DNA of 51,683 bases from Candidatus Woesearchaeota archaeon. GTDB taxonomy: Archaea > Nanobdellota > Nanobdellia > Woesearchaeales > ARS49. The translations under genes and the position numbers were made by a program. The notes beneath the pieces were generated by a model. The model was not told where the DNA came from, did not search any database, and worked only from the letters and a program-made list of their open reading frames with translations. Location: positions 1-51,683 of the forward strand of contig JACPID010000016.1 in NCBI GenBank assembly GCA_016188265.1. The letters are read 5' to 3'. Below, piece by piece: positions 42,496 through 42,904 of the stretch. How positions within the stretch are numbered: the stretch's first letter is position 1; every line of letters starts with the position of its first letter.

Positions 42496-42672
42496 TAAAG
42501 AATTAAAATATTGTCAGGTTTTTAAACTTAACTTCACTTGCAAAACTCTTCTAAATTCTCTTTTATTTCTTTAGCAAATTGTTTGTACTTTGTGTACATA
42601 CTTAAAAGTCGCCACATTTTTTTAATATAGTTTAAAAACATTTATAAATTGTTTAGAGTTCTTGATTTTTAC

Positions 42673-42811
42673 AGCGGGGTAGGGCAGCTAGGAGTGCCCG
42701 GTGAAACCTTTAATAAAGGTTCTGGATGGCTCATAGGGCCTAACTGTCTAAGACACCCACGTCGGAGCAATCCGAGGGCAAAGGTCGAAGGTTCAAATCC
42801 TTCCCCCGCTA
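42673..42811 (+). tRNA. initiator tRNA-Met(CAT) with three predicted introns (42704-42727, 42736-42754, 42761-42781)
   Basis: Spliced: AGCGGGG TA GGGC AGCTAGGAGT GCCC G GTGGG CTCATAA CCCAC AGGTC GAAGG TTCAAAT CCTTC CCCCGCT A (75 nt). Confidence 0.88.
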
Positions 42812-42904
42812 TTTTTTTTTAATTGTCTTTGTTGTTTTCTTTTATATTCTTAATCACAGTTATCTTTTAATATTATAGTTTTGTTTCTGTTGTCAAGAGG
42901 GTTT

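What the first reader, a model, noticed from the sequence alone, without database searches (positions are those of the whole stretch)
42673..42811. Initiator tRNA-Met gene with three predicted introns
The 139-nt gene has perfect acceptor (AGCGGGG/CCCCGCT-A), D and T arms but far too much sequence between them. Removing 42704-42727 (24 nt), 42736-42754 (19 nt) and 42761-42781 (21 nt) gives a 75-nt initiator tRNA with anticodon stem GTGGG/CCCAC (diagnostic GGG:CCC) and loop CTCATAA. Intron 1 has a textbook bulge-helix-bulge: CCGG-[TG^A]-AACCTTT..AAAGGTT-CTGG-[AT^G]. Intron 3 has inner helix TCGGA-GCAA-TCCGA with cuts AC^G and AA^A. Intron 2 sits at the canonical 37/38 with one mismatch. Introns 1 and 3 are at noncanonical sites (29/30 and 43/44). 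Multi-intron tRNAs are known mainly from Thermoproteales; three introns in an initiator tRNA of this type of archaeon would be unusual and implies a splicing endonuclease with broad specificity.
Basis: partly seen in the sequence, partly recalled or inferred. Interest (0 to 1): 0.85.

Follow-up and report, generated by a model that had tools for sequence, protein, structure and literature searches.

The report
Initiator tRNA gene with three introns
In an uncultured Woesearchaeota-type archaeon, the only gene found for the tRNA that starts every protein is interrupted three times; many relatives share the pattern, yet the genome shows only a simple, M. jannaschii-like intron-cutting enzyme to remove them, which current models would not predict.

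Summary
Window 42673-42811 (+) is an initiator tRNA-Met gene. Removing 42704-42727, 42736-42754 and 42761-42781 leaves a perfect 75-nt initiator tRNA, 71/75 identical to the intron-free gene of a same-family genome. It is the only initiator gene found in the 923,817-base assembly (98% complete). Introns 1 and 3 form bulge-helix-bulge (BHB) motifs at their cut sites far better than shuffled introns (3 and 5 of 200,000). Three introns are not unusual here: among 31 loci chosen for having the 29/30 intron, 18 have three and two have four; 14 (window included) share the set 29/30 + 37/38 + 43/44 or 45/46. At least 49 of 353 genomes of the order carry the 29/30 intron, and its BHB covaries (96% paired, 67% with permuted partners). 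A broad-specificity enzyme is not shown: one EndA was found, full-length alpha type, closest in fold to the M. jannaschii homotetramer, without the loops credited with broad specificity. Intron 1 is a nearly strict BHB; introns 2 and 3 each have one central mismatch. Best reading: a functional gene whose introns are cut by EndA and ligated by RtcB (both present). Splicing itself is inferred from sequence.

The parts
42673..42811 (+). initiator tRNA-Met gene (unspliced, 139 nt, no encoded CCA)
42673..42703 (+). exon 1 (positions 1-29)
   Evidence: matches intron-free homologues
42704..42727 (+). intron 1, 24 nt, site 29/30; central helix CCGG/CTGG 4/4, inner helix 7 bp, bulges TG^A and AT^G, outer helix 2 bp
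   Evidence: 30 distinct homologous introns with covariation
42728..42735 (+). exon 2 (positions 30-37, GGCTCATA, anticodon CAT at 42732-42734)
42736..42754 (+). intron 2, 19 nt, canonical site 37/38; central helix CTCA/TAAG 3/4, inner helix 3 bp, outer helix is the anticodon stem once intron 1 is gone
   Evidence: 37/38 introns in most intron-bearing homologues
42755..42760 (+). exon 3 (positions 38-43, ACCCAC)
42761..42781 (+). intron 3, 21 nt, site 43/44; central helix ACCC/GGGC 3/4, inner helix 5 bp, bulges AC^G and AA^A
   Evidence: 43/44 or 45/46 introns in 13 other loci
42782..42811 (+). exon 4 (positions 44-73)
42641..42649 (+). TTTATAAAT, box-A (TATA)-like element about 28 nt upstream of the gene
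   Evidence: sequence; no promoter test made
42812..42820 (+). run of nine T directly after the gene, terminator-like
   Evidence: sequence

Best explanation
This is the cell's working initiator tRNA-Met gene, transcribed as one precursor with three BHB introns. EndA (contig C8, 178 aa) cuts both ends of each intron in the 3-nt bulges, and RtcB (contig C21) joins the exons, giving the 75-nt initiator. Shown here: exon integrity, single copy in the assembly, BHB geometry and (for the 29/30 intron) its covariation in relatives, presence of both enzyme genes. Inferred: transcription, actual cutting, ligation and order. Likely order: introns 1 and 3 first or independently, intron 2 last, because intron 2 needs the anticodon stem that intron 1 interrupts and whose 3' strand the intron 3 motif borrows. 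The intron set is shared across much of the order and has been lost, or gained, repeatedly.
For: Spliced product is a consensus initiator and the only one in the assembly. BHB far better than shuffles for introns 1 and 3. A same-family genome has three introns in the same region, two at identical sites and the third at 45/46, with different intron sequences and conserved exons; its congener has none. 30 distinct 29/30 introns pair at 96% against 67% with permuted partners and 9-44% for slid central helices. EndA single copy, full-length, model TM 0.87/0.91 to M. jannaschii EndA. RtcB E = 4.4e-170. TATA-like box and T run flank the gene. Other tRNAs of the genome carry D-loop and T-loop introns, so noncanonical introns are routine here.
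Against: No RNA data. In unconstrained folding the central helices are minor states (about 0.12 for intron 1, 0.18 for intron 3) and the intron 2 BHB is essentially absent, competing with a hairpin between GGGCTC and the intron. Introns 2 and 3 each have a central mismatch. The assembly is 98% complete, so an unseen second initiator cannot be fully excluded.
Confidence: 0.92

Rival explanations
1. A decaying pseudogene; a second, intact initiator gene in the unassembled 2% of the genome does the work.
For: The assembly is in 25 contigs and about 98% complete. One relative's draft genome (G019) does hold two initiator loci with different intron sets.
Against: All exon pairs are intact, exons are 71/75 identical to a homologue, BHB motifs sit at the exact exon borders, and the gene is flanked by a TATA-like box and a T run. 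Homologous three-intron genes occur in many genomes.
Confidence: 0.04
2. The gene is real but one predicted intron is cut elsewhere or retained, so the product differs from the predicted 75-mer (intron 2 most doubtful).
For: The intron 2 BHB has 3/4 central and 3 inner pairs, is the least remarkable against shuffles (1,569 of 200,000) and is not populated in predicted folds.
Against: Only these borders restore the loop CTCATAA, the stem CCCAC and the 5-nt variable loop AGGTC; 37/38 introns sit at the same place in most intron-bearing homologues.
Confidence: 0.03
3. The gene is spliced as described, but by a heteromeric, broad-specificity endonuclease whose second subunit was missed. (This competes with the enzyme part of the best explanation only.)
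For: The closest sequence relative of the EndA in the PDB is the catalytic subunit of the heteromeric N. equitans enzyme.
Against: Profile search at full sensitivity over all ORFs of at least 60 aa finds no second EndA-like protein (next E = 0.55), although the N. equitans beta subunit is detectable from this EndA at E = 1.5e-11. The protein keeps its N-terminal domain (PF02778), whereas the match to the N. equitans catalytic chain starts only at residue 42.
Confidence: 0.1

Closest known systems
Multi-intron tRNAs of Thermoproteales (PMC4090602, PMC4033280)
   Same: Two or three BHB introns in one tRNA, canonical plus noncanonical sites; 29/30 and 45/46 are on the published list of noncanonical archaeal sites
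   Different: Reviews attribute those to (alpha-beta)2 EndA with a specific loop and give three introns as the maximum; this is a Woesearchaeota-type archaeon with a single loopless alpha EndA
Intron-rich tRNAs of Asgard Atabeyarchaeia and Freyarchaeia (PMC11291895)
   Same: Most tRNAs intron-bearing, often multiple and noncanonical
   Different: Different lineage; the passages read do not discuss initiator tRNA or EndA type
Nanoarchaeum equitans split initiator tRNA (PMC3218864)
   Same: DPANN archaeon; initiator gene disrupted at 37/38
   Different: There two separate half genes joined in trans; here one gene with three introns in cis; N. equitans EndA is heteromeric
Thermofilum pendens permuted initiator tRNA (PMC3218864)
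   Same: Disrupted initiator gene with a 37/38 site
   Different: Permuted gene order at 59/60; no permutation here

Membership tests
Archaeal initiator tRNA-Met | A1:U72, anticodon CAU, three G:C pairs GGG:CCC in the anticodon stem | tested here: met
Archaeal BHB tRNA introns | 4-bp central helix between two 3-nt bulges with cuts after the second bulge base (strict form) | tested here: inconclusive
   Met by intron 1 (4/4); introns 2 and 3 have 3/4, so they fit only the relaxed form; covariation for 29/30 in relatives
Archaeal BHB tRNA introns | Excision by EndA and exon ligation | not testable with these tools
   Genes present; no RNA or enzyme data
EndA, alpha4 type | Single full-length subunit with N-terminal and catalytic domains, catalytic Tyr/His/Lys, no CSL or ASL | tested here: met
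   (Y114, H124, K155 invariant in the 16-sequence alignment; assignment as the triad rests on alignment to known EndAs)
EndA, alpha4 type | Homotetramer | not testable with these tools
   Only a monomer was modelled
EndA, (alpha-beta)2 type | Separate beta subunit | tested here: not met
   None found at full HMMER sensitivity in the held assembly
EndA with CSL or ASL (broad specificity) | 11-18 residue lysine-bearing loop near the active site | tested here: not met
   The insertion of Aeropyrum EndA is absent in all Woesearchaeal EndAs aligned over that stretch; the ARMAN-2 alignment also shows no equivalent loop

The most novel reading that the evidence does not exclude
A lone, loopless alpha-type EndA processes relaxed BHB introns at several noncanonical sites, with up to four introns in one tRNA in relatives (L141, L226), so the CSL/ASL loops or a beta subunit are not needed for broad specificity and the accepted enzyme-intron co-evolution rule fails in a whole order.
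Probability: 0.45. Interest if true: 0.65.

Novelty: new member of a known kind. Interest (0 to 1): 0.48.

Why it matters
Translation initiation in this organism, as far as its assembly shows, depends on three correct excisions from a single gene, and the arrangement recurs across at least seven families of its order. Reviews hold that only EndAs with a beta subunit or a special loop remove relaxed introns efficiently and that three introns per archaeal tRNA is the maximum. Here the enzyme has neither feature and two relatives have four introns, so the rule becomes directly testable with one recombinant protein and one transcript. It also shows that annotation tools can miss an essential tRNA in such genomes.

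Tried and rejected
Second initiator gene in the genome: pattern and pairing scans found none. Hidden beta subunit: none. Alternative intron borders: all BHB-like cut pairs in the pre-tRNA were listed; none of the others restores the mature stems (inspection). A family pattern search written with the T stem and acceptor in the wrong register gave only chance hits and was discarded. Unconstrained folding did not recover complete BHBs and is reported as evidence against. Literature searches for tRNA introns in Woesearchaeota or DPANN found no dedicated study in the held library, which is not proof of absence.

Full report
Observation. The stretch 42673-42811 (+) was read directly. Removing 42704-42727, 42736-42754 and 42761-42781 gives a 75-nt initiator tRNA whose minimum-energy fold is a cloverleaf. 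It is 71/75 identical to the intron-free initiator of G003 (same family) and 68/75 to two others. ARAGORN and Rfam at gathering score miss the gene; the Rfam tRNA model gives only a 15-bit T-arm fragment there.

Uniqueness. The 25-contig, 923,817-base genome was taken in stretches and rejoined. GGGCTCATA occurs nowhere, and the 5' and 3' initiator patterns identify only this locus (one further weak 15-base match on C4 is not followed by a tRNA). A scan for T-arm plus paired acceptor with up to about 240 nt of extra sequence finds one initiator. Completeness is 98.24%.

Splice motifs. Intron 1: central helix CCGG/CTGG 4/4, inner helix 7 bp, two 3-nt bulges, outer helix 2 bp. Intron 2: 3/4 and 3 bp, with a 5-bp outer helix after intron 1 is gone. 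Intron 3: ACCC/GGGC 3/4 (A-C mismatch) and 5 bp, no outer helix. Shuffled introns do as well in 3, 1,569 and 5 of 200,000 cases. Free folding populates the inner helices of introns 1 and 3 (0.6-0.99) but their central helices only at 0.12-0.18, and does not populate the intron 2 motif.

Relatives. G019, same family, has introns at 29/30, 37/38 and 45/46 with different intron sequences; its congener G003 has none; G020 has one and its congener G025 none. Across 353 genomes of the order, 49 have a sequence matching an initiator with a 29/30 insert and 138 match the form without introns between positions 26 and 41; a genome can be in both lists (G019, G210), and the rest were not classified by these exact patterns. 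Of 31 parsed loci chosen for a 29/30 intron, 11 have two introns, 18 three and 2 four; 14 have the set 29/30 + 37/38 + 43/44 or 45/46 (seven each for the third site). By matching contig positions to these 14 fall in at least seven families. The sample was selected for the 29/30 intron, so these are not rates for the order. Four-intron cases L141 and L226 splice to clean 75-mers, with an extra D-loop intron at 13/14 and 15/16 respectively. In 30 distinct 29/30 introns the BHB positions pair at 95.6%, against 66.8% on average (maximum 73.3%) with permuted partners; sliding the central helix drops its pairing to 9-44%. The permutation ignores relatedness. Named records in the genome collection that pass the tRNA parser are mainly Candidatus Woesearchaeota, with one Aenigmatarchaeota record (L193) seen by eye; the bacterial hits of that pattern scan were not accepted by the parser.

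Enzymes. One EndA: TIGR00324 over cut-off, PF01974 and PF02778 both present, 178 aa. Full-sensitivity profile search finds no second. Aligned Woesearchaeal EndAs lack the Aeropyrum insertion with K44 and the ARMAN-type loop (loop definitions from PMC12397907, and PMC6379350); G192's chain was truncated and does not cover that stretch. Most multi-intron relatives also have a single EndA; G349 has two, and none was found in the 84% complete G019. The model (best of five, mean pLDDT 85.9; the other four 62-69, from a 16-sequence alignment) is closest to M. jannaschii EndA, TM 0.87/0.91. RtcB is present. Published reviews state that alpha4 and alpha2 enzymes cut canonical BHBs only and that (alpha-beta)2 and epsilon2 enzymes remove relaxed ones (PMC4033280; PMC6379350), but also that an alpha2 enzyme can remove a relaxed 37/38 intron from a full-length pre-tRNA. 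The tension here is therefore real but mild: intron 1 is nearly strict, intron 2 sits at 37/38, and intron 3 has one mismatch at the end of its central helix.

Mechanism. EndA cutting and RtcB ligation follow from established knowledge of the archaeal pathway. The order (introns 1 and 3 before 2) is inferred from shared exon bases. Congeners with and without introns suggest en bloc loss or replacement, or recent gain; direction was not tested on a tree.

Known context. Multi-intron tRNAs are described in Thermoproteales and several other archaea (PMC4033280; PMC4090602) and in Asgard archaea (PMC11291895). Disrupted initiator genes are known as a split gene in N. equitans and a permuted gene in T. 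pendens (PMC3218864). The held library has no dedicated study of tRNA introns in Woesearchaeota.

Verdict. A real, very probably functional three-intron initiator tRNA gene; a new member of a known kind, recurrent in its order, whose most interesting aspect is the plain enzyme that must process it.

Noticed in passing
own genome C22:75290-75500, C15:52327 onward, C16:8588-8645 (-), C24:496-560 (-): tRNA genes read by eye as Asp(GTC), Lys(TTT), Arg(CCT), Ala(GGC) and one unassigned carry T-loop inserts of the 59/60 type; for Lys the BHB is 4/4 central and 6 inner at 59/60; the same simple test did not find a good BHB for the Ala and Asp T-loop inserts.
   Followed up: partly
own genome C1:25527-25622 (-) and C16:4037-4184 (+): D-loop inserts in tRNA-Phe(GAA) (BHB 4/4, 6 bp) and in a Ser-type tRNA that also has an anticodon-loop intron. 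By eye about 21 of about 39 tRNA genes in this genome have introns.
   Followed up: partly
G019 contigs C80 (L254) and C115 (L255): Two initiator loci share 136 nt of 5' flank and exon at 99%: one has three introns, the other only a 26-nt insert at 53/54. Strain variants or a duplication.
   Followed up: partly
L141 (G134) and L226 (G288): Initiator tRNA genes with four introns each, one more than the maximum of three given in a 2014 review.
   Followed up: yes
L046 (G017): Initiator gene with an apparent insert inside the 5' acceptor strand and another in the D-loop.
   Followed up: no
L193 (Aenigmatarchaeota record): Initiator with a 14-nt insert at 29/30 and a T-loop insert, outside Woesearchaeota.
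   Followed up: no
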